Under the pieces are notes generated by a model. That model did not search any database, was not told the origin of the DNA, and saw only the letters and a list, made by a program, of their open reading frames with translations. The position numbers and the translations under genes were made by a program. From positions 2,914,001 through 2,978,000 of the forward strand of contig NC_019776.1 of assembly GCF_000317675.1 (NCBI RefSeq): a stretch of 64,000 bases of DNA, in the 5' to 3' direction. The DNA comes from Cyanobacterium aponinum PCC 10605. Its GTDB lineage: Bacteria; Cyanobacteriota; Cyanobacteriia; Cyanobacteriales; Cyanobacteriaceae. This document shows, piece after piece, positions 31,492 through 49,184 of this stretch (within the stretch, counting starts at the first letter, position 1; every line of letters starts with the position of its first letter).

Positions 31492-31737
31492 TAACTTGAG
31501 TTTTGGATAAGCTGAAAGCAGACCAACTCGTAGTCAGAAAACCTTATAGCTTCTTCTTAGAAATAACGATAAAATTGCCTTAACCCAAACTGACGTTAAA
31601 TATATTCAATCCCTAGCACCCCAAAACCCTAAGCCCCTACTTCCCCCTCTCACCCTCTCCCCTCATCTGGTCATCACCCTACCACCTGCAACCTCACACC
31701 TAACCTTATCCGATATTCTTAAACCAAACTAAGGTTA
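31492..31737. mobile_element. MITE-like dispersed element with TIRs
   Basis: The left end reads TAACTTGAGTTTTGGATAAG. The reverse complement of the right end reads TAACCTTAGTTTGGTTTAAG, so the two ends are imperfect TIRs of about 15-20 bp. The 246-bp body has CACCTGCAACCT heptamer-like words and no ORF. It is a second near-complete copy of the family at 15731-16024. The remaining 31738-31842 is the Hsp70-like gene leader. Confidence 0.65.
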
Positions 31738-31842
31738 CTTATTTTAATTCCGAACTCAGATGAAGTTGATTTAATCCTAGTACGACAGTAAAGTATAATT
31801 GGGAATTATTTTCTATCTATAACTAACTTTATTTTCCTAAAA

Positions 31843-33426
31843 ATGGCAATCGCAATTGATTTTGGTACAAGTAACACTGTCATTACTCGCATCAACCCTG
31901 TGACAGGGGAATCAGAAATTGTTAAATTAGCCAATCTTGCTCAAAAAAATAGCAGTATTCCCCCGATAATTCCTAGTTTAGTATATATAAATAATGCTAA
32001 TAATGACGATGTAATTATTGGTCAAAAAGTTAGAAATAAAGGTTTGGATAGTAAAAATAATCAGCGTTTTTTTAGTAATTTTAAAAGAGGTATAGGTACT
32101 GATATTCAGGGTTTTTTACCTATTTTAGATGATAAACAATTAGATTTTGAAAAAATTGGAGATTTATTTTTAAGTAATATTTTACAAGAATTAAACGGTG
32201 AGTTAGACTCTTTAATTATGACTGTGCCAGTAGATAGCTTTGAAAGTTATCGCTATTGGTTAACTGGGGTGTGCGAAAAGTGGAATATTGACAAAGTCAG
32301 AATTATTGATGAGCCAACGGCGGCGGCTTTAGGTTATGGTACGGAAGAAGATAATTTAATTTTAGTGGTAGATTTCGGCGGAGGTACGATCGATTTTTCT
32401 TTGGTAGAGTTAGATTTAGGAGAAAAGAAAAAACCTCAAGGATTTATATTGAAATGGGGTGAGAAGCTGTTAGGGGAAAGCTCGGCTCAAAAAACGAAGT
32501 TAGCCAAAGTGATAGCTAAGGCAGGGGCCAATTTAGGGGGTTGTGACATAGATAACTGGATTTTAGACTATTTTCATGAAAAACAAGGGGTAACAAAGTC
32601 TTCTCTAACTAGCCGTTTAGCAGAAAGAATTAAGATTCGTCTTTCTCAGACTGAGGAGGCTCAAGAAGTCTTTTTTAATGATTTAACCCTAGAAACTTAC
32701 GATTTAAGCCTAAATAGAGAAACTTTTGAGGAAATACTCAACCATAATCAGTTTTTTGCTCAACTAGATACTCTGATGGAAAGAGTCTTACAACAAGCAA
32801 GAAGTAACGGTGTCAATATCAATGACGTTAATCGAGTTTTGTTGGTGGGGGGAAGTGGACAAATTCCTGCCGTTAATCAATGGTTACAGCAATACTTCCC
32901 TCTCGAAAAAATAAAATGCGATCGCCCTTTTGACGCTATTGCCATGGGTGCATTAAAATTAGAACAGAATTTACAGATCAAAGACTTTCTTTATCATAGC
33001 TACGGAATTAGATATTGGAATCGTCGGCAAAAACGTCATGATTGGCACACCATTATTCCTAGTGGGCAACCTTACCCCATGACACAACCCAGAGAGTTAA
33101 TTTTGGGGGCTTCAGTGGAAAATCAACCTAGTATTGAATTGATTATTGGTGAGTTAGGGCAAGACAATACCTCTACGGAAGTTTATTTCGATGGTGAGCG
33201 TTTAGTTACTCGTAGTATAAGTCGAGGGACAGGTCAAGTACAACCGTTAAATGATACGGAAGGAGGGAAAACTATCGCCCAATTAAATCCTCTGGGCAAT
33301 CCGGGGAGCGATCGCATTAAGGTATTATTTAGAGTAGATGAGGATAGATGTTTAAAAATTACTGTGGAAGACTTATTAACCGATGAGATTTTGTTAGATA
33401 ATGTTATGGTAGCCGAGTTGAGTTAA
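31843..33426 (+). CDS. Hsp70-family (DnaK-like) ATPase
   Basis: This 527-aa protein has a full Hsp70 nucleotide-binding domain: phosphate-1 IAIDFGTSNTVI, RIIDEPTAAALGYG, phosphate-2 VVDFGGGTIDFSLVEL and the adenosine motif LLVGGSGQIPAVNQWL. After about residue 370 only a short beta-like region follows, well below the length of the DnaK substrate-binding domain plus lid. It is therefore one of the divergent cyanobacterial Hsp70-like proteins rather than a general chaperone. Partner J-domain or nucleotide-exchange genes are not adjacent. HIP1 octamers at about 32923 and 33308 suggest old residence. Confidence 0.88.
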   Translation: MAIAIDFGTSNTVITRINPVTGESEIVKLANLAQKNSSIPPIIPSLVYINNANNDDVIIGQKVRNKGLDSKNNQRFFSNFKRGIGTDIQGFLPILDDKQLDFEKIGDLFLSNILQELNGELDSLIMTVPVDSFESYRYWLTGVCEKWNIDKVRIIDEPTAAALGYGTEEDNLILVVDFGGGTIDFSLVELDLGEKKKPQGFILKWGEKLLGESSAQKTKLAKVIAKAGANLGGCDIDNWILDYFHEKQGVTKSSLTSRLAERIKIRLSQTEEAQEVFFNDLTLETYDLSLNRETFEEILNHNQFFAQLDTLMERVLQQARSNGVNINDVNRVLLVGGSGQIPAVNQWLQQYFPLEKIKCDRPFDAIAMGALKLEQNLQIKDFLYHSYGIRYWNRRQKRHDWHTIIPSGQPYPMTQPRELILGASVENQPSIELIIGELGQDNTSTEVYFDGERLVTRSISRGTGQVQPLNDTEGGKTIAQLNPLGNPGSDRIKVLFRVDEDRCLKITVEDLLTDEILLDNVMVAELS

Positions 33427-33457
33427 AGCAAGACACTTTTTTTATAGTCAATAAAAT

Positions 33458-33952
33458 ATGGATCAAAAAATATTTTCTCCTAGTTTAAGTCAACACATCG
33501 AAGCGATTTTATATCTAAAGGCTCAACCAACTACTCTACAAGAAATTGTTACCCTAACCAATCATTCTACAGAAGAAGTGCAAGAGGCTCTCATTCAATT
33601 AATGTCTGATTATGCTTATCGTAACAGTGCTTTAGAAATTATTGAAACAGAGCAAGGTTATAGTTTACAATTACAGTCGGAATATTTATCTCTCCTTTCT
33701 AATCTTGTACCCGCAGAGTTAAATACCGCTACTCTTAAAACCTTAGCTGCGATCGCACTTCAAAGCCCTATACTTCAGAGTGATTTAATAAATCTAAGGG
33801 GAAGCACCGCTTATCAACACGTTAGCGAATTAGTGGAATCTGGCTTTATCCGTAAACGGCGACAAGAAGAGGGGCGATCGTATTGGTTAGAAGTTACTGA
33901 TAAGTTTCATAAATATTTTGAATTTAATCAAGCCCAAACAGAAGAAGAATGA
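33458..33952 (+). CDS. scpB: Segregation and condensation protein ScpB
   Basis: ScpB is the winged-helix kite subunit of the SMC-ScpAB condensin, needed for chromosome segregation. The 164-aa protein begins SQHIEAILYLKAQPTTLQEI and has LKTLAAIALQSPILQSDLI and VSELVESGFIRKRR, the paired winged helices of ScpB. The size fits. No scpA or smc is in the window. It lies 31 bp after the Hsp70-like gene on the same strand, possibly co-transcribed. Confidence 0.9.
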   Translation: MDQKIFSPSLSQHIEAILYLKAQPTTLQEIVTLTNHSTEEVQEALIQLMSDYAYRNSALEIIETEQGYSLQLQSEYLSLLSNLVPAELNTATLKTLAAIALQSPILQSDLINLRGSTAYQHVSELVESGFIRKRRQEEGRSYWLEVTDKFHKYFEFNQAQTEEE

Positions 33953-33990
33953 AAATGAAATTCAATTAAGAATTAACTACAAGCAAAACA

Positions 33991-34434
33991 ATGAATTTAA
34001 CTCCATTAATAGGCATTACAACCTCAATCTTTCTCCTTAGTCAAAACCCAACTCAAGATAAATTCAACACCCTAAAAAGGACCTTAGAAAACTATAATTT
34101 CAACGTAAAAATAGAGCCTCCTCCCCTGAGAAGCACCTATGGTTTATTGCAAGTAAAAAACCGCACTATTTGGATAAACCCCATTGTATTTGATTTACAA
34201 ATTGCCCTCCCCACCTTAATTCATGAAGCAACCCACGCCGCCCAATTATGTGCAGGGAAAAACGAAATTACCGCTCTTAATCTGTCTTTATCTCCTCCCA
34301 ATATTGCCCGTCCTTATTTTACTCACTACAATCATGGTTTAAGGAGACATTTAGAAGCTGAAGCCTATGCGGTACAAACTCACCCTGAAGGCTATGATTT
34401 AGTTATATCCCTATTGAATAAACATTGTGAATAA
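33991..34434 (+). CDS. Small HExxH metallopeptidase-like protein
   Basis: This 147-aa protein has a hydrophobic N-terminus (LTPLIGITTSIFLLS), possibly a signal or anchor. A zinc-peptidase motif HEATH follows in TLIHEATHAAQLC, with a downstream LEAEAYAVQ Glu as the likely third ligand. The pattern suggests a gluzincin-type minimal protease. The family is unknown to me, and activity is inferred. It lies 38 bp after scpB on the same strand. Confidence 0.65.
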   Translation: MNLTPLIGITTSIFLLSQNPTQDKFNTLKRTLENYNFNVKIEPPPLRSTYGLLQVKNRTIWINPIVFDLQIALPTLIHEATHAAQLCAGKNEITALNLSLSPPNIARPYFTHYNHGLRRHLEAEAYAVQTHPEGYDLVISLLNKHCE

Positions 34435-34529
34435 ACAAAATTTTGAGTTTCTATGTAAGTTTACTATACTCAGCAAGGGAATAAAACATCTTCATGAAGC
34501 TAGGAAAAAGCGATGTAACTATAATTCAG

Positions 34530-36743
34530 TTAAGAACTAAGATTATGATATTCTCGAATATATTTAAATGGAAAAGGAATAACTGTACTTTGTCCTGTAC
34601 GCACAAAGTCAACATCCATAGTTTTTAATAAGTCTTGAAAAACTAATTGAGAATTTTTCACCGCTACAATTTTGCGAAGATGACAGCTATCCTTAAAAGA
34701 TGAGTTAATCGCCTCAACACTACAGCCGACAAAATAATGGGCTTCTGTCTCTGTTTCTCCAAAATAATTAATATTTATATTATTAAAAAAGAAAGAATAT
34801 TTACTGTCATTATCTTTGGGAAAAGTGAACCTAACTTGATATTTTTCTAGTAAATAATCTCTAAATTGTGTAGCTTCTTTAGTACTAGCACTATTATTTT
34901 TTCCTCCCAAATATTGCTTAATTAAACCATATAATTCTTTTTTGGAAATATGACGGGGATAGTTATTCTTCAATTCTTGACAAAAAATATCAAATTTTTC
35001 ATTGTTGTTAAACTGAGGGTAAATAGTTAGAAAGTCTTGGACAATATTTGTTATCGTAAAACCGTTACTGAGATACTCAGATAATTCTTTTTCTTGTTCT
35101 TCAAGCACGAATTTTATTTGATCTAAATTTGGTAAAGTGATTTCATCGGAGCGAAAAATTAAATTAATATCATGATTTTCTGACAAGATAAACCCTTCAA
35201 ATTTAAAATAAGATTCGGCTTTCTTTTCCTGTTTAATAACTTGCTCAATATACTCTTTATACTCATCATATTTATGAGTTTGTAAAAACATATTATCATC
35301 TGATGTTAATGTGTCTAATTCAAAGCTACCATCATGATTAATCGTCATAAAAGTTAAAGATTTATTTTGATTTTTATCGTCATTATTTTCATCGTACATC
35401 GCAAATATCCATTTTTTATTAGATAATTGTGTTATTTTACTCCAATCAAAAAGACTTATTTTTTGACGAGAAATATCTTGTTTAATAATTAATTCTTTTA
35501 TTATAGTTTTAATAATCGTTTTTATTTCTTTTGTTGGTATTGATTCAATGGTAAGATTTTGTCTTTGAATATTATTCTCAGAAGATAAATATTTATCCTC
35601 AATATTATTTCTTTTATAATAGTTTTTATCCCGAATAATTCTGACATTAAAAGCATCATTAATATCATGATTACTAACAGAAATTAAAGTTTCATTTTGA
35701 AAATAAGGTATCAGCTCTTTTTTTATCTTTTCAACTAAATTTTGAGATTCTTCATTATTAACTAAATCTATAATGTTAATTGACTGGTTTTCAATAATAG
35801 AATTAAGTTTTTTTGTTGCTTTGTTTTGTTGAGTAAAAATAAAATTGGTGCGATCGAACCTTAAACATTTTTTAGTTTCCAATGGAATAAACTCCACAGT
35901 TAAATATGATTTTAAATATTTTCTCATATCTAAAATTACTTGATGAAGAATACCAGCTTTACTATTTTCAAAATCTGCTAAGGAATCAAAATTTAAAAAA
36001 TTTTTATGAGCTTTTTTTCCTTTTTTCCCCGCTTTAATATATGTACTATTGGGATTATTTTTATCTTCTGAACCTAACCATCTTATTAAAGTAGCCTTAC
36101 CTTCATCAATTACATATCGTGGTCTTTTTAAGTACTTTAATAGTTGTTTTTTATCTTTACCTTTTGCATTTTTTAATTCAGCTCTAATATCTTTTTCTAA
36201 GCGATAATTTCCCATACTTACATTTAGTAAAAACTCATTATCAGTATTCTTAATATAATTAAGATTTACCTGTGCTACCAAAATAGATCGAGCTAATTTA
36301 CCTATTTTTAAGGATGGAATTTTTAATAAAGAACCAGTTAAATTGGAAAAATGAAGATTACTAAATCTTGACCTTGAAGAGCCAAGATAATTTAATAATA
36401 AGCGACCAAGAACTTCATTATTAATAAAATTTTCTTCATCACAACTATTTATTTTTTCAATTTCAACTTCTTTTGCTATACAGTCTTGCAAACAATCATC
36501 ATTATTTCTAATTCTTTTTTCCAATTCATAACCATTATTTCCCTGCTTTTTAAACATAGCATAAGCATAATTATCTTTATAGCAAACTGCCAAGGCTTTA
36601 TACTCGTCTCCTATAATATAATCCAGCTGCTTTGCTCCCCACCACTTACTATTTTTCTCTCTTTGAAGGGAAAGGAAAATAAAATCTCTTTTAATATTAT
36701 CTATGTGAAAAGTAAATTTTAAACGGTTAGTAATAATATTCAT
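34530..36743 (-). CDS. Large partner protein, possible Argonaute-like DdmE
   Basis: This 737-aa protein is encoded 10 bp after the helicase-nuclease gene, so the two form one operon. No catalytic motif is obvious. The order of mixed alpha/beta blocks, with a basic centre (about 190-260) and an end reading QSTVIPFPFKYIREY, is compatible with a catalytically dead prokaryotic Argonaute. PIWI domains often end in a similar Pro-rich beta strand near the C-terminus. DdmE, the guide-binding partner of DdmD, has about 690 aa and the same gene order, as far as I recall. I see no DEDX tetrad. Codon use is very AT-rich and no HIP1 octamer is present. pPIWI-RE is an alternative. Confidence 0.5.
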   Translation of the reverse strand: MNIITNRLKFTFHIDNIKRDFIFLSLQREKNSKWWGAKQLDYIIGDEYKALAVCYKDNYAYAMFKKQGNNGYELEKRIRNNDDCLQDCIAKEVEIEKINSCDEENFINNEVLGRLLLNYLGSSRSRFSNLHFSNLTGSLLKIPSLKIGKLARSILVAQVNLNYIKNTDNEFLLNVSMGNYRLEKDIRAELKNAKGKDKKQLLKYLKRPRYVIDEGKATLIRWLGSEDKNNPNSTYIKAGKKGKKAHKNFLNFDSLADFENSKAGILHQVILDMRKYLKSYLTVEFIPLETKKCLRFDRTNFIFTQQNKATKKLNSIIENQSINIIDLVNNEESQNLVEKIKKELIPYFQNETLISVSNHDINDAFNVRIIRDKNYYKRNNIEDKYLSSENNIQRQNLTIESIPTKEIKTIIKTIIKELIIKQDISRQKISLFDWSKITQLSNKKWIFAMYDENNDDKNQNKSLTFMTINHDGSFELDTLTSDDNMFLQTHKYDEYKEYIEQVIKQEKKAESYFKFEGFILSENHDINLIFRSDEITLPNLDQIKFVLEEQEKELSEYLSNGFTITNIVQDFLTIYPQFNNNEKFDIFCQELKNNYPRHISKKELYGLIKQYLGGKNNSASTKEATQFRDYLLEKYQVRFTFPKDNDSKYSFFFNNININYFGETETEAHYFVGCSVEAINSSFKDSCHLRKIVAVKNSQLVFQDLLKTMDVDFVRTGQSTVIPFPFKYIREYHNLSS

Positions 36744-36753
36744 TTTTTTACTC

Positions 36754-39700
36754 TTAGGATAAATATAACTCTTGAAATAGATACTTTAACGCTTCTGGAT
36801 GAATTTTATTATCTTGGCATAGAAACGGTATTCTAATAATTTTATTATTATCGGAAGGGATAGGCTCAAATTTACAATTATCTTTATCGGCTAAGATATT
36901 AATTATTAATACTTTTTCCGCATTAATATTTCTCATCTTTTGTCTAATTTTCTCTAATTCAGCTTCTTCTTCTTTATCAAAATTATTCCAAAATTTAAAA
37001 TCCACATAAATACCATCTCTAGTTTTAAAGTCGAATCTCTCATATTCATTTTCTTCAAGTTCTAATAAATGAATATTAAAGGTTTTTTCTAAAATATGTT
37101 TACCGCAAACTTCTCCTAAAGCACCCTTATAAATATTATTAAAAATAGGTGGACTAATAATTAATTCTCCGGGTACAAAATTGGTAGCCCAATTATTCTT
37201 AATAAATAAATCTTTTAAGATACTGATTTTCATTAATTCTGGTAACCGACAAGCAGTTTCACTGACTTCTTGTAAACCGTTATCTTTGTCAAAGAAAATT
37301 TCTACCTCTCCATAATCATTTGTTTGGGTAAATCGATAACAATTATTCGGTGTAGGCAATTCTACATAAACTTTTAACCATCGGCTTTCGCAATCTGATT
37401 GATTAGTAATAGTTGGTTGGAATAAAACTTGTTGTCTCAAGGATTGCCATTGTTCTATACTTGATTTATTCCATGTCCTTGTCAAGCTACTTTGAATATA
37501 TTGAAAGGCCCGATGACTGTTATTTTCAGCTTTAATTTTTGCCTCTTTTTCTTCTTCTGAAGGGGGAATCAATTGAGTACAATTTTTAACTAATTCTTGA
37601 TATTCTCGAACAGGAATAATATCAGGGGGTAATGAGACAGAGTGAAGATATGATTTCATACTATTATCAGCTAATATATGAATAGTAGATGCTTTCATGT
37701 TAGTACGGCAAATTCTTCCTAATGCCTGAATTATTACTTTGTTTAAATACTTAGTAAATGCTGAAGTTTGGTAAAGATTATTATTATCAGTATTTATTTT
37801 TTTACTCCTGTAATTAGGGTTGAGATATTTACGGAATGCTTCATCTAATTTATGCTTAAATTGTTGACGAGACATAGCACCATTTTCAAACAAAAATTCT
37901 AATTGAAAAAGATACTTAATGAAATTTTTGTCTTTTTCTTTTTGTTCTATTTCTTCAAAGTTAAGAGGAGTCAGTAAATTAGTAGGCTTTTCTAAATACA
38001 CCCCATTAATATCCATTTTTTTTCTACTTTTAAAATCATTAATTTTGATAGGGGTAAAATTCTGAGGAATAGGATATTGCAAATTAACCCCAGCTCCTAA
38101 AGTTTGGTAAGTTGAAATAATAAAAATTCGTTCTCCTTTACTGAGTTTTTTTTCTAATTTTGTTTGTTCTTCCTCAAAGTTTTCGCTATTTAAAATAAAG
38201 TACTCCCCTTCGATTGATTTTTGATTTTCTTTCGTGGCTGGAAGATTTTTTATATAACAAAAATACTCTTTAATAATATCCAAGTCTAACTTATCATCCC
38301 CTGATTTAGGTAACTTATTGAGAAAACAAATAAAACACTGACAATCTTCATTTTTATTGAAATATTCCCAGACTTCTAATAATCTTACATAACGACAAAA
38401 AATATAATTATCATCGTTGTATTTATTACATAATTTGTTGGCACTTTCTTCATCATTAAGCATTTGCTTTAGGGTTTCTAGCGCTTCATGTTTATCTTTT
38501 TTATCTTTTGTACCAATAAATTTAGATTTAATCTGAATTTTCTCGTATCCTTTAATTATTTCTTGATATTCAGTTTTTAACTGATTAATTTCATCTTGAG
38601 AAAGAGAATAAAAAGAATCTTTAAGATATTGTTTTAAATATTTAATGTCATAGTTACCAATATTTGTGTCTATATGAGCAGTGGCAGAAATTCCTATGAC
38701 CATTCCCCGTTGACAAATTTGTGTTAGGATACTCTCAGGAGTGCGATCGAAGCTATACAAATAAATTTTTGAGGTCAAATCGTGATTATCATTATCTACG
38801 ATGTCATGATATTTAAAACCCACTTCGTAAAAACTTTGTAACTGATTATTAATTTTTGAGGCTTTTTCTTTAGTAAAAGAATAACGATTTTCTAGTATTT
38901 TATTAGTTAGTAATTCAATAGTTTTTTCATCTGTTAATTGGAACCCAAGAACCAGAATTGAGTCAATGGCAGATTTGAGAGAAAAAACTTCATCTCCATT
39001 TTCTTTTCTCAACTCTTTATAATTCGTACCAAACAAATAAATAACCTTTTGGAAGTAACTAAAAAATCCACCAATTCTTCCTAGTAAAGATGATATTGTT
39101 TTATAGTTTTTATAACTTTTGTCCTCACGCAAAACTACTTTTAACCAATTAACATTATCTTCCTGTATCGTTTCAATCATGAGATTAGATTTACGATCTA
39201 AAACGTGATGAGATTCATAGTCATAGAATAAAAAATTTCTGGATTTTTTAAAATCGGATGGAAAAGTTTTATGGGTATATACCAAAGAAAAGTCTTTAAA
39301 TATTTCTCTCGCATCTTTCTTTAGGTTGGCTAAAATTTTTGATAGTGATTGCCGTTTTTTCTTAGAAATTTCTTTTTTTCTCACTAAGGAATCTTTAAGT
39401 ATAAAAGAGGGAAATTTCCTACCATTAAGATTATTATGGATATTAGAAAATAAAGTAATTAAATCAATAGGATTTTCTGTTCCCTTTTCTATAATTTGAT
39501 TTAAGATAGTATCTTTAGTGGCGTCAAATTCATCGATAAAGATTAAGGAATTTTCAGTTAATTCTTGATAACAGTAATAGGCTGGTTCAATCAAAGTAGA
39601 ATTTTTTACAAGAAATTTATCCATACTCATAAATAATATTGTCTTTTCATCTGTAAAAACTGTGGGGTATAGCTTCCCTATCCATTGATAATCAGAATTA

Positions 39701-40224
39701 TTTTTTATTAACTGTAAACGATTATTTTTATTCTTATGTCGCTTGTCTAATTCTTGTACAATTTCTGCTCGAAAAGCAGGTTCATATTTCTCTCTAATTT
39801 CTTTTTTTATTAGTTTTTTATATGTTTTTAAATAATTATTATCCCAACAATTATTGTATGCTTTTATTTCTTCAATTAATGTATCATAATTTTTACTTTT
39901 AGAAAATTTTTCAGGAATTTCTAAATCAGGTAAATTTTCCAAGACAAAATCTAAATTAGATTTGATAAATAATACGTTATCCTCATATTCACTTTGTTTA
40001 TTATCTTTATCAAACCGCTTTTTCAAATCTTCATGGGGTAAATTCTTTTTTAAATTAGTAATAAAGATGATTTTTCTCTTTTCTGTTTTAAATTTATGAT
40101 AGTTTTGATATATAAAATCTAAAACATTATGGGTTTTACCAAAACCAGTAGGCATACTCAGGAGTAATAAACCTTTTTTTTGATCGAGGGCGTATTCTCT
40201 TAATATATTTTGTAGAGTACTCAT
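36754..40224 (-). CDS. SF2 helicase-PD-(D/E)XK nuclease fusion, DdmD-like
   Basis: This 1156-aa protein has SF2 helicase motifs: Walker A LSMPTGFGKTHN (K30), DEFD box IDEFDATKD (231-234), SAT in GISATAHID, motif V STYQTLGAGVNLQYP, and motif VI QALGRICR. The C-terminus holds a PD-(D/E)XK nuclease: E1038 in GALGEVCG, D1065, D1075 and K1077 in YERFDF and YVDFKFW. This fusion, its length and its position just upstream of a roughly 700-aa partner match DdmD of the DdmDE plasmid-defence system. A possible -10 TATAAT lies on the minus strand at 40245-40250. By eye, no GCGATCGC octamer occurs in either gene, in contrast to most neighbours. Confidence 0.68.
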   Translation of the reverse strand: MSTLQNILREYALDQKKGLLLLSMPTGFGKTHNVLDFIYQNYHKFKTEKRKIIFITNLKKNLPHEDLKKRFDKDNKQSEYEDNVLFIKSNLDFVLENLPDLEIPEKFSKSKNYDTLIEEIKAYNNCWDNNYLKTYKKLIKKEIREKYEPAFRAEIVQELDKRHKNKNNRLQLIKNNSDYQWIGKLYPTVFTDEKTILFMSMDKFLVKNSTLIEPAYYCYQELTENSLIFIDEFDATKDTILNQIIEKGTENPIDLITLFSNIHNNLNGRKFPSFILKDSLVRKKEISKKKRQSLSKILANLKKDAREIFKDFSLVYTHKTFPSDFKKSRNFLFYDYESHHVLDRKSNLMIETIQEDNVNWLKVVLREDKSYKNYKTISSLLGRIGGFFSYFQKVIYLFGTNYKELRKENGDEVFSLKSAIDSILVLGFQLTDEKTIELLTNKILENRYSFTKEKASKINNQLQSFYEVGFKYHDIVDNDNHDLTSKIYLYSFDRTPESILTQICQRGMVIGISATAHIDTNIGNYDIKYLKQYLKDSFYSLSQDEINQLKTEYQEIIKGYEKIQIKSKFIGTKDKKDKHEALETLKQMLNDEESANKLCNKYNDDNYIFCRYVRLLEVWEYFNKNEDCQCFICFLNKLPKSGDDKLDLDIIKEYFCYIKNLPATKENQKSIEGEYFILNSENFEEEQTKLEKKLSKGERIFIISTYQTLGAGVNLQYPIPQNFTPIKINDFKSRKKMDINGVYLEKPTNLLTPLNFEEIEQKEKDKNFIKYLFQLEFLFENGAMSRQQFKHKLDEAFRKYLNPNYRSKKINTDNNNLYQTSAFTKYLNKVIIQALGRICRTNMKASTIHILADNSMKSYLHSVSLPPDIIPVREYQELVKNCTQLIPPSEEEKEAKIKAENNSHRAFQYIQSSLTRTWNKSSIEQWQSLRQQVLFQPTITNQSDCESRWLKVYVELPTPNNCYRFTQTNDYGEVEIFFDKDNGLQEVSETACRLPELMKISILKDLFIKNNWATNFVPGELIISPPIFNNIYKGALGEVCGKHILEKTFNIHLLELEENEYERFDFKTRDGIYVDFKFWNNFDKEEEAELEKIRQKMRNINAEKVLIINILADKDNCKFEPIPSDNNKIIRIPFLCQDNKIHPEALKYLFQELYLS

Positions 40225-40326
40225 TTTCTTACCAAAGTTAACAAATTATAGAAAAACCCTAAGAGTAAATATCATGGTCAAAACATACTCAATGTCTTAC
40301 AATTAATATATACATTAATCACCATG

Positions 40327-40343
40327 AGTAGCATTCAGCTACT
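40327..40343. other. Small hairpin in the larB-helicase gap
   Basis: AGTAGC-ATTCA-GCTACT is a 6-bp stem with a 5-nt loop. It lies downstream of larB and upstream of the helicase-nuclease gene, both on the minus strand. There is no clear T-run, so a terminator role is uncertain. Confidence 0.35.
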
Positions 40344-40442
40344 AAAATATTTACCCTTTTGGGAACGAGAAAAATGTCATATATTCATATATCAGTGGCA
40401 AAATTGAATTTTATGCAGTATTTCACGAGAAATTTATGTGCT

Positions 40443-41219
40443 TTACTCCTTTTTTTCCGAAAATCTATTGGCTAATCTCAAAATTTGTCCTGCTAACATG
40501 GCCGCTCCAAAACCATTATCGATGTTAACCACACCTATACCAGTGGCACAAGAATTAAGCATAGTTAACAATGCTGATAAACCTCCAAAACTTGTACCAT
40601 AACCGATACTTGTTGGCACAGCAATGACTGGGCAATTAGCCAAACCTGCCACAACACTGGGTAAAGCCCCTTCCATTCCCGCCACCACTATTAAAATATC
40701 TGCTTGGGTGATGAGATGACGATGATTTAATAAACGATGTATTCCTGCCACTCCCACATCCCATAAACGCTCAACGGTAAATCCACATAATTCCCCTGTT
40801 ATAGCGGCTTCTTCGGCTACTGGCAAGTCGGCTGTACCCGCAGTCACGATCGAAATTTTACCCTTGTATTTATTGCTATTTTGCCCGATCGCAGCTATTT
40901 TTGCCAGAGGGTAGTAACGCAAATCTTGTATCTGTTCTTGTAAAGTTTCAGCTACATCAGCTTCTAAACGGGTGGCCATCACAAGGGGAGAATTTTGTCT
41001 CATGACATGGATAATTTGTCTAATTTGTTCTGGAGTTTTGCCCTGACTCCAAATCACTTCTGGAAAGCCCGTGCGTAGCTGACGATGATGATCAATTTTT
41101 GCAAAGTTGTCTATGGCTTCAAAATTCAAATATTTCAGTTTTTCCACCCCTTCACTGGGTGTAATTTTTCCTTCTGCTATCTGTTTTAATAGTATCTCTA
41201 ATGAGGTGCGATCGACCAT
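40443..41219 (-). CDS. larB: Pyridinium-3,5-biscarboxylic acid mononucleotide synthase LarB
   Basis: LarB carboxylates and hydrolyses nicotinic acid adenine dinucleotide, the first step of the nickel-pincer (NPN) cofactor. The 258-aa protein matches in full: EVIWSQGKTPEQI, VTAGTADLPVAEEA, VAGMEGALPSVVAGL, PVIAVPTSIGYG, and VNIDNGFGAAM at the end. No larC, larE or larA gene is adjacent. Many cyanobacteria carry larB alone, so the product may have another use (inference). Confidence 0.92.
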   Translation of the reverse strand: MVDRTSLEILLKQIAEGKITPSEGVEKLKYLNFEAIDNFAKIDHHRQLRTGFPEVIWSQGKTPEQIRQIIHVMRQNSPLVMATRLEADVAETLQEQIQDLRYYPLAKIAAIGQNSNKYKGKISIVTAGTADLPVAEEAAITGELCGFTVERLWDVGVAGIHRLLNHRHLITQADILIVVAGMEGALPSVVAGLANCPVIAVPTSIGYGTSFGGLSALLTMLNSCATGIGVVNIDNGFGAAMLAGQILRLANRFSEKKE

Positions 41220-41311
41220 TATTAATGATTAAGTAATGAGTAATAAGTAAGGAGATTCGGGGTTCAGAGTTATTAATTGTTAATTGCTAATTGCTAATTA
41301 CTAATTCTTTA

Positions 41312-42274
41312 TTATTGTTTCCAGATTTGTTCTAGGATTTTATCAGTAGGAATATCGGCAATTTGGGAACTTAAAGACTGAATACCAAAAACTCGATCGC
41401 ATTTTGGTGGTAATAATTTAGTTGTCTTAGTCGGTCCAAATAAAGCAATAGTATAGACTCCTACTGCGATGGCCAATTGCATGGGTGCGCTATCAGTACA
41501 AAGCATTAAATTTGCTCCAGCAATTATTGCCGCTAATTTACCAATATCAGGAGGACTAACCACTTTCACATAAGGACATAAAGAAACTATTTCCGTTGTC
41601 CATTCTAAATCATCAGGTCCACACAATAAGACAATAGGAATATCAGGTTGCTTCATTCGTATGTCCTCAATCACCCTTTGCCATTTTGGAACAGGATAAA
41701 TTTTATTAATACCCTGATAAGCAGTTAAAATACTAGCACCACCATGAATGATAATATACCCAGTATCTTTAATTTTCAATCTTTTTTGTTCTGACTCAGC
41801 CCATTCAATATCCTCCCTCGGTACATTAACACTTAAATCAGGACAAGGATCGTCTATTTTCAAGGCTTTGAGTAAATCATGATACATAAAAGGGATATAT
41901 TGATCGGTATTTTTGGGAATAGTACAATTGAGAAACCAAGAATTAGAGCTTTGATAACCCACCCGAGTAGGAATACCATCTAGCCAAAGTAAGAAATTAA
42001 CAATCCAATTCTGTTCAAGAGTAATCACTAACTCATACTCTCTATCTCTAATCATACCCAAGAGATTAAGGTAATCAGCTAATCCATTACGATCTTGAAA
42101 ATCAAATACTAACACTTCTTGCACGTGCTTACAAATGCGATAGCTATTCTTACTTCTTGGCTCAACAATTACATCAATAGTTGCTTGAGGATATTTATTT
42201 TTTAAGGTTTGTAGAGTTGGGAAAAAGAGAATTTGATCGCTAATGCCACCCGGAATCAAAACTAAAACACGCAT
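41312..42274 (-). CDS. Glycosyltransferase family 9 (heptosyltransferase-like)
   Basis: This 320-aa protein resembles GT9 ADP-heptose:LPS heptosyltransferases. Typical segments are VLIPGGISDQILFFPTLQTL, IIHGGASILTAY, VLLCGPDDLEW and LMLCTDSAPMQLAIAVG with ALFGPT, the GT9 signature. The role is probably LPS or exopolysaccharide assembly. Cyanobacterial LPS often lacks heptose, so the sugar donor may differ. It stands 92 bp upstream of larB, on the same strand. Confidence 0.85.
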   Translation of the reverse strand: MRVLVLIPGGISDQILFFPTLQTLKNKYPQATIDVIVEPRSKNSYRICKHVQEVLVFDFQDRNGLADYLNLLGMIRDREYELVITLEQNWIVNFLLWLDGIPTRVGYQSSNSWFLNCTIPKNTDQYIPFMYHDLLKALKIDDPCPDLSVNVPREDIEWAESEQKRLKIKDTGYIIIHGGASILTAYQGINKIYPVPKWQRVIEDIRMKQPDIPIVLLCGPDDLEWTTEIVSLCPYVKVVSPPDIGKLAAIIAGANLMLCTDSAPMQLAIAVGVYTIALFGPTKTTKLLPPKCDRVFGIQSLSSQIADIPTDKILEQIWKQ

Positions 42275-42450
42275 AATAAAAATATTTTATAAATAATTTC
42301 TGAGGATAATTTTAACCTTTAAATAGCACCTAAAACCCAACATCAACAATTATGAATTATGAATTACAAATCATAAATTAAGGGCAAAGGGCAGAAAAAA
42401 TTATTCCTTTATTCCTTAGCTTATACTAATCCTTTACCCCTATTAGTAAG

Positions 42451-43068
42451 TTAGTCGATAACTGCATTGAGTAAAACATCAGTCAAACTCATATTGTCCA
42501 AATCATCCATTGTGATGGTATCAACAATATCAAATTTCGCCCCCGCTTCTTGCAATAAATCGTCAAGGGCTTTGAAATACTCTTTAGCTTTGACATCTTG
42601 CCCAATTTGGATAAAAGAAATTCCTAATTCTTCATCTCGATCGATTTTTTGACTAGCATTAATAATTAAACGAATTATCTCTTTTGGTTCATCGGGAATG
42701 CCGTCAGTGATAACTAAAATAGTTTCGCCATTTTCCTTTGCTTTGCCTTCTGCCTTACGTTGGAAATAATTATCCAAAGCATCTTGTAAAACACTCTTTA
42801 AATCTGAACTGCCCATAGGCTCGTTTTGAGCGTAGATTTCCCTAATCTTGTCAGAATTAACATTATCATAACGTCTAAAACGCCCTGAAAATAAATAAAC
42901 AGTAATACCATCACTATCTAATTCATCGCATTTTTTGGCTAACGCAATGGTGGACTCTTGGGCAATTTCCCATCTAGTTTTTCCTTTGCCATCATCACTG
43001 TTTAAACTACCACTTTTATCAATAATTAAAGTATAGTCTCGATTAGTAACAATTGATTCAATATTCAT
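42451..43068 (-). CDS. Stand-alone VWA domain protein
   Basis: This 205-aa protein is almost only a VWA domain. The MIDAS is D17-K-S19-G-S21 (IIDKSGSLNS), with VITDGIPDEP and SFIQIGQD, as in TerY-like and other small cytosolic VWA proteins. It does not lie in the kinase-phosphatase island but resembles its TerY-type member. No partner is obvious next to it. It is the second of three VWA proteins here. Confidence 0.82.
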   Translation of the reverse strand: MNIESIVTNRDYTLIIDKSGSLNSDDGKGKTRWEIAQESTIALAKKCDELDSDGITVYLFSGRFRRYDNVNSDKIREIYAQNEPMGSSDLKSVLQDALDNYFQRKAEGKAKENGETILVITDGIPDEPKEIIRLIINASQKIDRDEELGISFIQIGQDVKAKEYFKALDDLLQEAGAKFDIVDTITMDDLDNMSLTDVLLNAVID

Positions 43069-45088: not shown

Positions 45089-45526
45089 TCACAGATGCTT
45101 AATTCTTATATCACCCCATTTTTCGTTAAGATACTCTGCTAATACCCTTCTATGACAATGATGAGGTTTTTTCTCACTACATAACAAACATCCATTTTCA
45201 AATAATTCTGGGGATAATTTTTTCTCAATTTTTCGGTTATCGATTAAGTTTAAATAAGATTGCTCATATTCTATCCACGACATATTTTTCTGCTTCTTAA
45301 ATTGGTCTAACATTTCTTTCGTTGGTGCTAAATCTAAAATATGTACATAATGAATATCACATAATGCTTTTAAAAAATATTTTAGATCGTTTTTTTTTGC
45401 ATAACCTGCAAGTTGAGAAGAATTATTTAATCTCACATCTATTAGTGTTTTAATGTGATTTTTTTTTAATGATTCAAAAAATTCCTCTGCTGATGTTTGC
45501 GTGAAACCAATAGTAAATAAATCCAT
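45089..45526 (-). CDS. DUF488-family protein (second copy)
   Basis: This 145-aa protein has the DUF488 fold markers: FTIGFTQTSAEEF at the N-terminus, LIDVR near residue 40, and CSEKKPHHCHRRVLAEYL near the end. Two Cys/His pairs there could form a metal or catalytic centre. It follows the longer DUF488 gene with a 2-bp gap and is the last gene of the island. It is shorter and more divergent than its neighbour, suggesting tandem duplication or a heterodimer. DUF488 function is unknown, and association with defence modules is known from genome surveys. Confidence 0.78.
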   Translation of the reverse strand: MDLFTIGFTQTSAEEFFESLKKNHIKTLIDVRLNNSSQLAGYAKKNDLKYFLKALCDIHYVHILDLAPTKEMLDQFKKQKNMSWIEYEQSYLNLIDNRKIEKKLSPELFENGCLLCSEKKPHHCHRRVLAEYLNEKWGDIRIKHL

Positions 45527-45528
45527 TT

Positions 45529-46134
45529 TTATTCCTGTAAATAAGCTATTTTTTCCCCTTGAAGAGTATATGCTTCTTCTATTAACTCTTCTTCCGATTT
45601 TGTAAAATTTATATTTTGTTCAAATAAGTTTAATTGTTGTGATAAGTTCAATTCAAAAAAGGCAATTAATCTTTGTTCTAGTTCTGTTTGAGATTCTAGT
45701 TGACCATTGGGTAAAATATGCCATATATCTATTTTATTTTTTTTTAAATACCGAGAAATTAATATGGCTCGATGACAATTAATAGGATCTTTTTCTGCAC
45801 ACATTAAGGCAATTTTATATTGTTTTAAGCCTTTTTTTAATCTTTTTAAACCTTTTAAAAATTCTTCTGTTTGGGCTATTTTGTCATATACTACTTTATT
45901 TTCTTCATAACAATTTGGGTTATCACTTCTTGCACCTAATTCTTTTCCAAGAAAGCTATAGCTAATATTATTTCTTCTGAGTTCATGTTTTAATTTTTCT
46001 TGATTATACTGTTGATTATATCGAGAATAAGGTGTAGAACGAACATCTGCGATCGCACTTATTTGATGTTGTTTTAACAGGTCAATAAATTTTTCTATAC
46101 TATGATTGCTATGTCCAATAGTAAATATTTTCAT
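45529..46134 (-). CDS. DUF488-family protein (first copy)
   Basis: This 201-aa protein has the classic DUF488 pattern: IFTIGHSNHSIEKFIDLL, AIADVRSTPYSRYN, and CAEKDPINCHRAILISRYL. The GHSN and CHR motifs are the invariant ones. A C-terminal extension of about 60 residues is rich in Gln and Glu. It is separated by 19 bp from the upstream dual-OB-like gene and 2 bp from the second copy, so the three are surely co-transcribed. One HIP1 octamer lies in it. Exact activity is unknown. Confidence 0.82.
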   Translation of the reverse strand: MKIFTIGHSNHSIEKFIDLLKQHQISAIADVRSTPYSRYNQQYNQEKLKHELRRNNISYSFLGKELGARSDNPNCYEENKVVYDKIAQTEEFLKGLKRLKKGLKQYKIALMCAEKDPINCHRAILISRYLKKNKIDIWHILPNGQLESQTELEQRLIAFFELNLSQQLNLFEQNINFTKSEEELIEEAYTLQGEKIAYLQE

Positions 46135-46153
46135 TCATCAAAAAGTAGGTTTG

Positions 46154-46837
46154 TTATTGAGGAAAATAAGGTATAACTGCCGCTACAAGTTTATAACAGT
46201 CACCGTTATAAGGGACTCCTAAACTTATTGTAAATAAAAATTTGACTTGTTGAGGTAATCCAATATCTTCGGAAGTATAGTAACCTAAATCGAATTGTGC
46301 TAATTTTTTGAGCCAATCGAGGTCTGTTACCACTAAATCATATTCAACATTATGTAAATAAAATATAGCTCTGATTTGCCGATTACCAGAATAGTTATTT
46401 TTTATCACCCATTTAACTCCCACTGGTTGAATAATTTCCAAAGAACTTTTAGCTGGATATTGTTCTAATTGGATATAGGGGATACGATCTGATGTTGTAC
46501 CAAATAAATTATCACCTTGAAAAAAAGCATTTTTGATTAATCGCAGATGAGACTGATTGAGAGAATTAGAGACTAATCGCCATGGGATTGTTTCAATTAG
46601 CCAGTTTTCAGGCTGATATGGTTTTGGTTTTGGGGTTGAAATACCGATTTCTATAACAGATAATTTTCTGGGTTCACTACCATCAATCAGAATATAATCT
46701 TCGGGGAAAAGTGCACCGTGATCATCATTTCTGCCAATGGGGCGAATCCATCCTTTTTCATCGGTGCGAATACCCGCAATACAACGCCCACCATGTTTTT
46801 TAGAATTAGCCAAACAAATAATTTCCACTTTTGTCAT
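46154..46837 (-). CDS. Dual-OB-domain-like protein
   Basis: This 227-aa protein begins with VEIICLANSKKHGGRCIAGI, a segment I associate with the dual OB domain (DuOB) proteins of bacterial conflict systems. A second beta-rich half follows (about 120-225). OB folds usually bind nucleic acid or nucleotides. Its place between the DUF2357-like and DUF488 genes supports a sensor or effector accessory role. The family call is by memory of the motif and should be checked. Confidence 0.6.
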   Translation of the reverse strand: MTKVEIICLANSKKHGGRCIAGIRTDEKGWIRPIGRNDDHGALFPEDYILIDGSEPRKLSVIEIGISTPKPKPYQPENWLIETIPWRLVSNSLNQSHLRLIKNAFFQGDNLFGTTSDRIPYIQLEQYPAKSSLEIIQPVGVKWVIKNNYSGNRQIRAIFYLHNVEYDLVVTDLDWLKKLAQFDLGYYTSEDIGLPQQVKFLFTISLGVPYNGDCYKLVAAVIPYFPQ

Positions 46838-46928: not shown

Positions 46929-49124
46929 TTATTTTGAACCACAAAAACAACAAATAAAACCGATATTATGATCATCTTTTCTTGTGGGAATGGCTAAAAT
47001 ATCTCTACCAAAAACTCGATCGAGATTAAGAGGATTATAATTTAGTTCTTTATTTTCTATTCCTTGAACGGCGATAAAGGGATAATTTTTATCACAATTA
47101 CCGCAATGTTTTGTTCCCCAGCTACTTCCACATTGACTACAATGGCATTGAAAACTATGATTATTGAGTTTTTCTATATTTTTTAAATCTTCTTGATGAT
47201 TACAAACAGGACAAATTGTAAAAGGTTGAATTAGTTGATTTATTTGATTAGGTAAATCATGATTTTGAATATTTCTTAATTCTGCTAACTGCGATCGCCC
47301 TTGTCTTCCCATACTTTCAACCCTCTTTATTTCTTTAGTTAATTCTCTATTAAAATCATTAATATTTTCATTAGAAATAAAAGCAGTAATGTTCAATTCT
47401 CGATTATTTTTTATTGTTAAATAGCCATGAAAATAAGTCAGTAAATTGTCAGGAATTTGCAAAGGAAGATTCAAAATAGGAGGATAAGATAAGTATAAGT
47501 TGCCATATAACCACCATTTAATTGTATAAGCAACCCTTTCTAAGCTAAGAATTTCAAAGGGATTAACGGGAAATATCCCAGTTAAATTATTATTTTGAAT
47601 AAGAATATTGTTTAGTCTATTTTGTAAATTTTTAGATAATAAATTTTGTTCTTCTTTTGTGCCTAAATAGAGAATAATATTATGACAAGAGTTATCAACT
47701 TGAGCGAATAACTTATCTAAGATATTATTAATTTCTTTTTCATCGTTTATTCCTGTTAAATTAATCCCTAGAGGAATTAAACATAAATCTTGATTAATTA
47801 AATCAGAACTTAAATAGAAAGTGCGATTTTTTGATAAATATAAGTCAATTTTTCCTAATAATCCTTGAAAAGAAAGAAGTAGATTATTTTGATTATTGGT
47901 ATCTTGTTGATTATGCTTTAAATCTTGATTAAAAATAGGCTCAAAATTTAAGCCTTGATCGTTATTATCGTTATTTCCACAGAAGGTTTTACAAATGAGT
48001 AATAAACAGAAAGCCTCAAAACCTTGAAAAAATTGTTGATACTCTTCAAAGAATTGTTGAGGATTTTTTATTTGTCTTGTTTTCCATTTACTCCAATTTC
48101 TCCAGAGCAAATCTATGTATTTATAATGTTGATCATTAACAAAAATATTTGTCCTTTTTAAAGTCATTGGTACATAAGTTTGTTTAGGAATTGCTTTATA
48201 TAAATCAGTGGTAATTAAGCCTAATAATTTACGCTTTTTATCATTTAATTCTTTTAAAGTTTCTTCAAGTTCTAAAATTCTTTCTTTTGCATTAAATTGT
48301 TCTCCCCACAAGGATGATATACGCTTTCTATTTTTCCAATGTACTTTATACATTTCATCAGAAAAATTCATCGCTTCTTTTAATTCATTTTCAATTAATT
48401 TTAATTCTGCTATACGGCGAGAAATATATTCTAATAAGTTGTCTATTAATTTTGCTGTAACTTGATTTTCATAGATGTTTAATAAGTCTTCCCTCACTAA
48501 ACAAAGTAATTTATTCGGTTTGACAGAATTAAAGTTACGGCGATACCAGTCTTCGGAATGGGATGCTAAATGTTTGATCGCACCGTTGGCTATTTTTTTA
48601 GTACGAGAAATGGCTAATTTTTCTGTTTCCATTTTCAAATAAGTGCGGGGACGACGGCAAACATTTTCTAAATGCCCCCATTGTTTTTGTAGGTCAATTT
48701 CTAAGGTTTGTAAGTGAATTTTTGCGTTAATTTCTGGTACTAAAGGAGATAAATTAAGCCAATTTTTCCAGTTATCTTGATTAATATTTAAGTTATGAGA
48801 TTGATAATAAAAATAAGCAATGCTTTCTCTTAAAATATCGCTAGCGATTTGCCATTTAGGAATTTTTATATTGCCTAAATTCTGAGTTTGAGAATCACTG
48901 AATAAATGAATATTATTACTATTATTCACCCATAAATAAAATCTTAAATTTGAGGGTATTAAAACATCATTAACCTTGAGATTATCTGATTCATTTATTA
49001 TTAACCATTCACCTAAAAGGGCATTTTCTGGTAATTGATTAAAGATTTGTCCAGTTATACGATTAACAAATTTCATAGTTTTTTTTGGATTATTATAAAT
49101 AAGTTTGTAGTAATGGCTAAACAT
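46929..49124 (-). CDS. DUF2357-like protein with C-terminal zinc ribbons
   Basis: This 731-aa protein is encoded just after the McrB-like AAA+ gene (60-bp gap). The N-terminal part (about 1-300) has a helical region with CRRPRTYLKMETEKLAISRT and LVREDLLNIYENQVTAKLID, resembling DUF2357, the usual partner of McrB-type AAA+ proteins. The C-terminus holds several CxxC pairs (CPVCN, CHCSQCG, CGNC and CCFCG), so two or three zinc ribbons. I cannot point to a nuclease motif. It may act as the McrC-like activator or DNA-binding subunit. ATG at 49124 or 49076 are both possible starts. Confidence 0.55.
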   Translation of the reverse strand: MFSHYYKLIYNNPKKTMKFVNRITGQIFNQLPENALLGEWLIINESDNLKVNDVLIPSNLRFYLWVNNSNNIHLFSDSQTQNLGNIKIPKWQIASDILRESIAYFYYQSHNLNINQDNWKNWLNLSPLVPEINAKIHLQTLEIDLQKQWGHLENVCRRPRTYLKMETEKLAISRTKKIANGAIKHLASHSEDWYRRNFNSVKPNKLLCLVREDLLNIYENQVTAKLIDNLLEYISRRIAELKLIENELKEAMNFSDEMYKVHWKNRKRISSLWGEQFNAKERILELEETLKELNDKKRKLLGLITTDLYKAIPKQTYVPMTLKRTNIFVNDQHYKYIDLLWRNWSKWKTRQIKNPQQFFEEYQQFFQGFEAFCLLLICKTFCGNNDNNDQGLNFEPIFNQDLKHNQQDTNNQNNLLLSFQGLLGKIDLYLSKNRTFYLSSDLINQDLCLIPLGINLTGINDEKEINNILDKLFAQVDNSCHNIILYLGTKEEQNLLSKNLQNRLNNILIQNNNLTGIFPVNPFEILSLERVAYTIKWWLYGNLYLSYPPILNLPLQIPDNLLTYFHGYLTIKNNRELNITAFISNENINDFNRELTKEIKRVESMGRQGRSQLAELRNIQNHDLPNQINQLIQPFTICPVCNHQEDLKNIEKLNNHSFQCHCSQCGSSWGTKHCGNCDKNYPFIAVQGIENKELNYNPLNLDRVFGRDILAIPTRKDDHNIGFICCFCGSK

Positions 49125-49152
49125 TAAAAACCTGTTTCCCTCACCCCCAACC

Positions 49153-49165
49153 CCTCTCCCAGAGG
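49153..49165. other. Hairpin in the McrB-DUF2357 gap
   Basis: CCTCT-CCC-AGAGG is a compact hairpin inside a G/C-rich block (CTCACCCCCAACCCCTCTCC). The block recurs in cyanobacterial intergenic DNA (from memory). Confidence 0.5.
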
Positions 49166-49184
49166 AGAAGGGAGACCTTTATTT

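What the first reader, a model, noticed from the sequence alone, without database searches (positions are those of the whole stretch)
34530..40224. Candidate DdmDE-like plasmid-defence pair in a cyanobacterium
The 1156-aa protein has SF2 motifs (K30, DEFD 231-234, QALGRICR) and a C-terminal PD-(D/E)XK nuclease (E1038, D1065, D1075, K1077). It is followed 10 bp later by a 737-aa protein without a known enzyme motif. Helicase-nuclease first, Argonaute-like partner second, and the lengths recall DdmD and DdmE, known as a guide-dependent plasmid-elimination system. If right, it extends this system to a cyanobacterium and could explain poor plasmid maintenance. The Argonaute identity of the partner is an inference.
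Basis: partly seen in the sequence, partly recalled or inferred. Interest (0 to 1): 0.82.

Follow-up and report, generated by a model that had tools for sequence, protein, structure and literature searches.

The report
DdmDE plasmid-defence pair in a cyanobacterium
Two neighbouring genes in a cyanobacterium encode a DNA-cutting motor and an Argonaute-like guide protein that closely match a known bacterial system for destroying plasmids, and near relatives of the pair also occur in methane-metabolising archaea.

Summary
Observation and interpretation both hold. The genes lie on the minus strand: ddmD 36754-40224 (1156 aa), then after 10 bp ddmE 34530-36743 (737 aa). DdmD matches PADLOC DdmD (E 1.7e-43) and solved DdmD (2.9e-51). 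DdmE matches solved DdmE by sequence (1.1e-10), and its predicted fold matches six DdmE chains ahead of every other Argonaute listed. Genome and plasmid sizes equal those of Cyanobacterium aponinum PCC 10605. The pair is a 5.8-kb two-gene insertion missing from a same-genus genome. In cyanobacteria it is patchy: 8 of 386 genomes, host and one broken copy included. ApsAB-like cyanobacterial members of the wider family are in print (PMC11096173, passages). Less expected: pairs in five archaeal records, three beside a UvrD-type helicase-nuclease gene; two literature searches showed no report, but the key structure papers are not held. Related pairs also sit on plasmids. Activity is inferred from homology. 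New member of a known kind.

The parts
36754..40224 (-). ddmD: SF2 helicase with C-terminal PD-(D/E)XK nuclease, 1156 aa
   Evidence: PADLOC DdmD E 1.7e-43; PDB DdmD 9ix4 E 2.9e-51; Foldseek ranks 1-20 DdmD chains
34530..36743 (-). ddmE: long Argonaute-like guide protein, 737 aa
   Evidence: PDB DdmE 9iw3 E 1.1e-10; predicted fold matches six DdmE chains first
34435..40248 (.). inserted stretch (about 5.8 kb, both genes) absent from a same-genus genome, where 168 bp lie between the same flanks; right edge approximate
   Evidence: blastn of G001 (L080) against the window: window 31676-34434 and 40249-42441 match L080 up to 15665 and from 15834; no exact direct or inverted repeat of 10 bp or more between the 200-bp edges
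36744..36753 (-). 10-bp gap between ddmD and ddmE, consistent with one transcript (inference)

Best explanation
This is a DdmDE plasmid-elimination module. By homology, DdmE is a catalytically inactive long Argonaute that carries a short DNA guide and pairs with invading plasmid DNA. It then recruits DdmD, normally an autoinhibited dimer, which loads on the displaced strand, runs along it as a helicase and cuts it with its nuclease domain. Shown here: gene identity, predicted fold, conserved helicase and nuclease residues, constant pairing, and a mobile two-gene cassette. Inferred from the Vibrio cholerae and Lactobacillus casei systems: guide use, recruitment and plasmid loss.
For: PADLOC DdmD 1.7e-43. 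PDB sequence matches to DdmD 2.9e-51 and DdmE 1.1e-10. DdmE fold: six DdmE chains rank first. DdmD fold: Foldseek ranks 1-20 and VIA ranks 1-14. Named helicase and nuclease residues, L835 apart, invariant in 27 of 27. DdmE beside DdmD in 11 of 11 and 33 of 37 (sets overlap). D and E identities correlate, r = 0.96 over 31 pairs and 0.92 over 21 cyanobacterial pairs, 0 of 2000 permutations as high, though shared phylogeny contributes. Empty site in a same-genus genome. Mechanism in V. cholerae: PMC12409362 (passages).
Against: No functional data. DdmE against V. cholerae DdmE is only E 0.014 by sequence and 16-17% identical by structure. The host keeps a 62,874-bp plasmid (PMC11577773, passages), although DdmDE is reported to act mainly on small plasmids (PMC12409362, passages). 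Catalytic inactivity of the PIWI domain was judged only from alignment columns. No promoter or terminator signal above chance.
Confidence: 0.9

Rival explanations
1. The pair is an ApsAB-type antiplasmid system, the sister branch of the family: a DdmD-like helicase-nuclease with an ApsB-type Argonaute-like protein.
For: PMC11096173 (passages) places ApsA and DdmD in one family and reports ApsAB-like systems in cyanobacteria. Two of 11 cyanobacterial partners (L016, L022) have a K four residues after the conserved Y, as in ApsB (read).
Against: P0002 matches DdmE in the PDB by sequence and fold. In the window protein N380, not K, stands four residues after Y376. ApsB itself was not available for comparison.
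Confidence: 0.05
2. The pair acts on other invading DNA (phage, or DNA taken up by transformation) rather than on plasmids.
For: SeAgo of Synechococcus elongatus lowers natural transformation as well as RSF1010 maintenance (PMC10653904, passages). The window also holds a candidate phage-defence module, PDC-M45.
Against: Characterised DdmDE acts on plasmids (PMC12409362, passages). Carriage of related pairs on plasmids suits competition between plasmids.
Confidence: 0.15
3. The locus is an inactive relic in this genome.
For: Broken copies are common among relatives: L024, and L043, L049, L052, L060 and L061 with split frames.
Against: Both window ORFs are full length and the ddmD motifs are intact.
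Confidence: 0.07

Closest known systems
DdmDE of Lactobacillus casei (PDB 9ix4, 9iw3, 9ixm)
   Same: Helicase-nuclease plus Argonaute-like partner; best sequence match for both proteins
   Different: Only 18-23% identical in the structure alignments
DdmDE of Vibrio cholerae (PDB 8u3k, 9ezy, 9bgk)
   Same: Same two-protein architecture and folds; nuclease E, D, D and K aligned
   Different: Its genes sit in island VPI-2 with other defence systems (PMC12409362, passages); here a lone two-gene insertion
ApsAB of Escherichia coli ST38 (PMC11096173)
   Same: Helicase-nuclease of the same broad family plus an Argonaute-like protein, antiplasmid activity (passages)
   Different: ApsB carries a Y[X]3K...QG...K MID motif; the window protein lacks the K. 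No comparison with an ApsB sequence was made
SeAgo of Synechococcus elongatus PCC 7942 (PMC10653904)
   Same: Argonaute-based exclusion of a replicon (RSF1010) in a cyanobacterium (passages)
   Different: A stand-alone active Argonaute nuclease; the window genome has no Pfam Piwi match

Membership tests
DdmDE | DdmD: SF2 helicase with C-terminal PD-(D/E)XK nuclease, homologous to known DdmD | tested here: met
DdmDE | DdmE: long Argonaute-like fold, closest to DdmE among Argonautes | tested here: met
DdmDE | ddmD followed directly by ddmE | tested here: met
   10-bp gap; paired in 11 of 11 and 33 of 37. Co-transcription itself not tested
DdmDE | PIWI catalytic tetrad missing from DdmE | tested here: inconclusive
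   From residue 440 on, only E516, D712 and E731 are invariant acidic columns in 27 rows, which does not look like a D-E-D-X set; no residue-level superposition was made
DdmDE | DdmE binds short DNA guides | not testable with these tools
   Y376, Q395 and K421 of the MID region are invariant in 27 of 27 and line up with V. cholerae DdmE; binding itself needs biochemistry
DdmDE | Eliminates plasmids | not testable with these tools
   Needs deletion and expression assays
ApsAB | ApsB MID motif Y[X]3K...Q...K | tested here: not met
   Window: N380 four residues after Y376. In that column of the 11 rows: N in 7, K in 2 (L016, L022), E in 1, G in 1
ApsAB | Sequence similarity of the partner to ApsB | not tested
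   No ApsB sequence was fetched
Stand-alone prokaryotic Argonaute nuclease (SeAgo type) | Pfam Piwi domain | tested here: not met
   P0002 has no Piwi match; genome search for PF02171 0 of 1, while the control genomes ring in 1 of 14

The most novel reading that the evidence does not exclude
The window pair belongs to a cyanobacterial-methanogen branch of DdmDE that moves as a bare two-gene cassette across the bacteria-archaea boundary. In archaea it has been joined by a UvrD-type helicase with a PD-(D/E)XK nuclease, which may finish plasmid degradation or supply guides. That would give the nuclease step a named candidate where the V. cholerae work leaves it open whether host nucleases are needed.
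Probability: 0.3. Interest if true: 0.65.

Novelty: new member of a known kind. Interest (0 to 1): 0.5.

Why it matters
Relatives of Cyanobacterium aponinum PCC 10605 are being considered as chassis strains. Its close relative UTEX 3222 (98.45% ANI) could not be transformed with RSF1010, pBBR1 or pCB plasmids by the methods tried (PMC11577773, passages). Integrating suicide plasmids failed there too, and the strain has restriction-modification genes, so ddmDE could not be the whole answer; whether UTEX 3222 carries ddmDE is unknown. Still, the pair gives PCC 10605 one gene deletion to test as a barrier to replicating vectors. The archaeal pairs extend a system that, in what I read, was characterised in bacteria, and suggest a test of what completes plasmid destruction.

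Tried and rejected
Phage carriage: no relative confirmed in IMG/VR viral contigs (pattern-based scan) or in 50,697 phage records. A third conserved cassette gene in cyanobacteria: apart from ddmD and ddmE, no cluster of ORFs was shared by more than 4 of 12 loci in the stretches held, and several shared clusters were small ORFs inside the two genes. Repeats at the insertion: only one exact 9-bp AT-rich direct match between the edges. Promoters and terminators: 33 promoter-like sites against 37.8 expected and 2 terminator-like sites against 1.7, uninformative. NCBIfam: no family above its cut-off for either protein. The UvrD-nuclease of the archaeal loci was sought in ORFs of L014-L024, L026-L062, L084-L087 and the window: none besides the three. 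DdmD in the archaeal phylum: 16 of 294 genomes pass the E limit, but 14 are short Walker-A matches of E 1e-5 or weaker, leaving 2 of 294, both already known. Direction of transfer between cyanobacteria and archaea: a quick DdmE tree put the archaea inside the cyanobacteria; in the careful tree the cyanobacteria form one group in 8% of bootstrap trees but the attachment point is open, and in the DdmD tree too. The three outgroup rows had very long branches and were dropped from the careful DdmE tree. Low G+C alone is weak evidence: four other window ORFs are about as low.

Full report
Observation. All but L835 of QALGRICR are invariant in 11 of 11 cyanobacterial DdmD and in 27 of 27 mixed DdmD. 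One search used the window and 26 of the 37 loci; the DdmE alignment likewise used 26 of 37.

Host. The window's genome has 4,176,973 bases in two contigs, the second 62,874 bp long. PMC11577773 (passages, Table 1) gives Cyanobacterium aponinum PCC 10605 a chromosome of 4,114,099 bp and a circular episome of 62,874 bp; the sum is the same.

Identity. DdmD matches PADLOC DdmD (E 1.7e-43) and solved DdmD of L. casei (2.9e-51) and V. cholerae (about 3e-41) (species from the titles). DdmE has no Pfam match above a cut-off and no PADLOC match, but it matches L. casei DdmE at 1.1e-10 and V. cholerae DdmE at 0.014. Its predicted structure (27-row alignment, mean pLDDT 80.2, pTM 0.79) finds six DdmE chains first. 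VIA-align gives these Z 15.1-18.8 and other listed Argonautes at most 12.1. The DdmD model (pLDDT 77.3, pTM 0.69) finds DdmD chains at Foldseek ranks 1-20 and VIA ranks 1-14, Z 22.4-27.3, ahead of DinG and XPD helicases at 18.6 or less. DdmD rmsd values are large (11-13 A over about 1000 residues), which I read as differences in domain arrangement.

Guide pocket (inference). PMC11096173 (passages) says DdmE lacks the MID motif. Here Y376, Q395 and K421 are invariant in 27 of 27 DdmE. They line up with Y, Q and K of V. cholerae DdmE in the printed alignment. The K that follows Y by four residues in ApsB is N in the window protein and K in only 2 of 11 cyanobacterial rows. A partly kept pocket is possible. 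The L. casei alignment is weak there and has a gap at the Y.

Mobility. In G001, a same-genus genome, the flanking stretches are 93-95% identical and 168 bp apart where the window has about 5.8 kb holding just the two genes. Gain here or loss in G001 cannot be told apart from two genomes. ddmE and ddmD have 25.9% and 27.4% G+C, against 36.6% and 35.3% for the flanks and a mean of 35.5% for 40 other window ORFs, though four of those are about as low. In 10 of 10 other intact cyanobacterial loci the pair is 7-13 points lower in G+C than its flanks. Flanks differ from locus to locus. I saw no repeat at the edges and no integrase between the shared flanks.

Distribution. P0001 hits 7 of 60 relatives and 8 of 386 genomes of the phylum, one of them a broken copy; both counts include the host. 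The PADLOC profile hits 7 of 386. A genome-contig scan, limited to two peptide patterns, gave 37 loci. By record title 22 are cyanobacterial (L048 and L062, from one MAG, look like halves of one locus), 8 Bacteroidota, 5 archaeal (Methanolobus, two Methanoperedens, Methanoculleus, Methanosarcina; one labelled MAG), one Methylobacter and one Desulfuromonas. DdmE follows in 33 of 37; the other 4 (L029, L048, L053, L055) end within or just after the ddmD frame.

Archaea. The five archaeal pairs form one group in the DdmD tree (96/100) and the DdmE tree (96/100). They are 45-46% (D) and 37-42% (E) identical to the window pair (one archaeal DdmE is cut by its contig). Archaeal and cyanobacterial pairs average 53% (D) and 46% (E), Bacteroidota and cyanobacterial ones 36% and 28%. 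In 3 of 5 archaeal loci (L034, L041, L037) a UvrD helicase with a PD-(D/E)XK nuclease domain is the neighbour: 29 bp and 117 bp upstream on the same strand in L034 and L041, downstream and opposite in L037. Two of the three are 58% identical to each other, the third only about 27%. Such proteins occur in 9 of 100 genomes of that phylum at E 1e-50; one of the nine is the Methanolobus genome itself, which holds two. L038 shows none within the held stretch; L050 shows none upstream and ends at its contig downstream. Ordinary clustering of defence genes is a plain alternative to a working partnership.

Plasmids. Five plasmid records match P0001. Four were opened: Nostoc sp. UHCC 0926 pn2, Persicobacter pPP11, Lactobacillus intestinalis and Cetobacterium p6. 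In each a second gene follows directly, and both genes are annotated as hypothetical proteins. In Persicobacter and L. intestinalis the pair lies near replication and partition genes. Apart from the Nostoc pair, whose DdmE was confirmed (as L021), these are distant (21-30% identity over part of DdmD) and their second genes were only placed in a tree. I made no literature search on plasmid-borne DdmDE, so I claim no novelty for it.

What is known. In V. cholerae, DdmE guides and DdmD translocates and cuts, and it is open whether host nucleases finish the job (PMC12409362, passages). ApsAB-like systems in cyanobacteria are in print (PMC11096173, passages). For DdmDE with defence systems and cyanobacteria, one search listed two papers: that one and one on Vibrio pili (listing only). 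For archaea I searched 'DdmDE' with 'archaea' (16 papers, listing seen) and with 'methanogen' (2 papers). I opened only PMC12259885 for this, where the term occurs only in the reference list. The main DdmDE structure papers are not held, so archaeal or cyanobacterial pairs may be reported there.

Verdict. The finding is a true DdmDE pair, a new member of a known kind, with function inferred. The archaeal branch and its helicase-nuclease neighbour are the less expected part.

Noticed in passing
window 45089-46837 (-): Three adjacent genes (two DUF488, one DuOB) match PADLOC candidate phage-defence set PDC-M45 C, B and A (E 1.7e-68, 7.4e-76, 2.2e-39), about 5 kb from ddmD; the next two genes at 46929-51893 have no Pfam family above a cut-off.
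   Followed up: partly
L034:4915-7980, L041:4575-7883, L037:8367-11636: A UvrD helicase with PD-(D/E)XK nuclease neighbours archaeal ddmDE in 3 of 5 loci.
   Followed up: partly
L085, L087: DdmDE-like pairs near plasmid replication and partition genes in Lactobacillus intestinalis and Persicobacter, which suggests competition between plasmids.
   Followed up: partly
L024, L043, L049, L052, L060, L061: Split or broken ddmD or ddmE frames in relatives; decay of the module seems common.
   Followed up: no
window 42451-43068 (-): A von Willebrand A protein resembling the TerF C terminus near the insertion.
   Followed up: no
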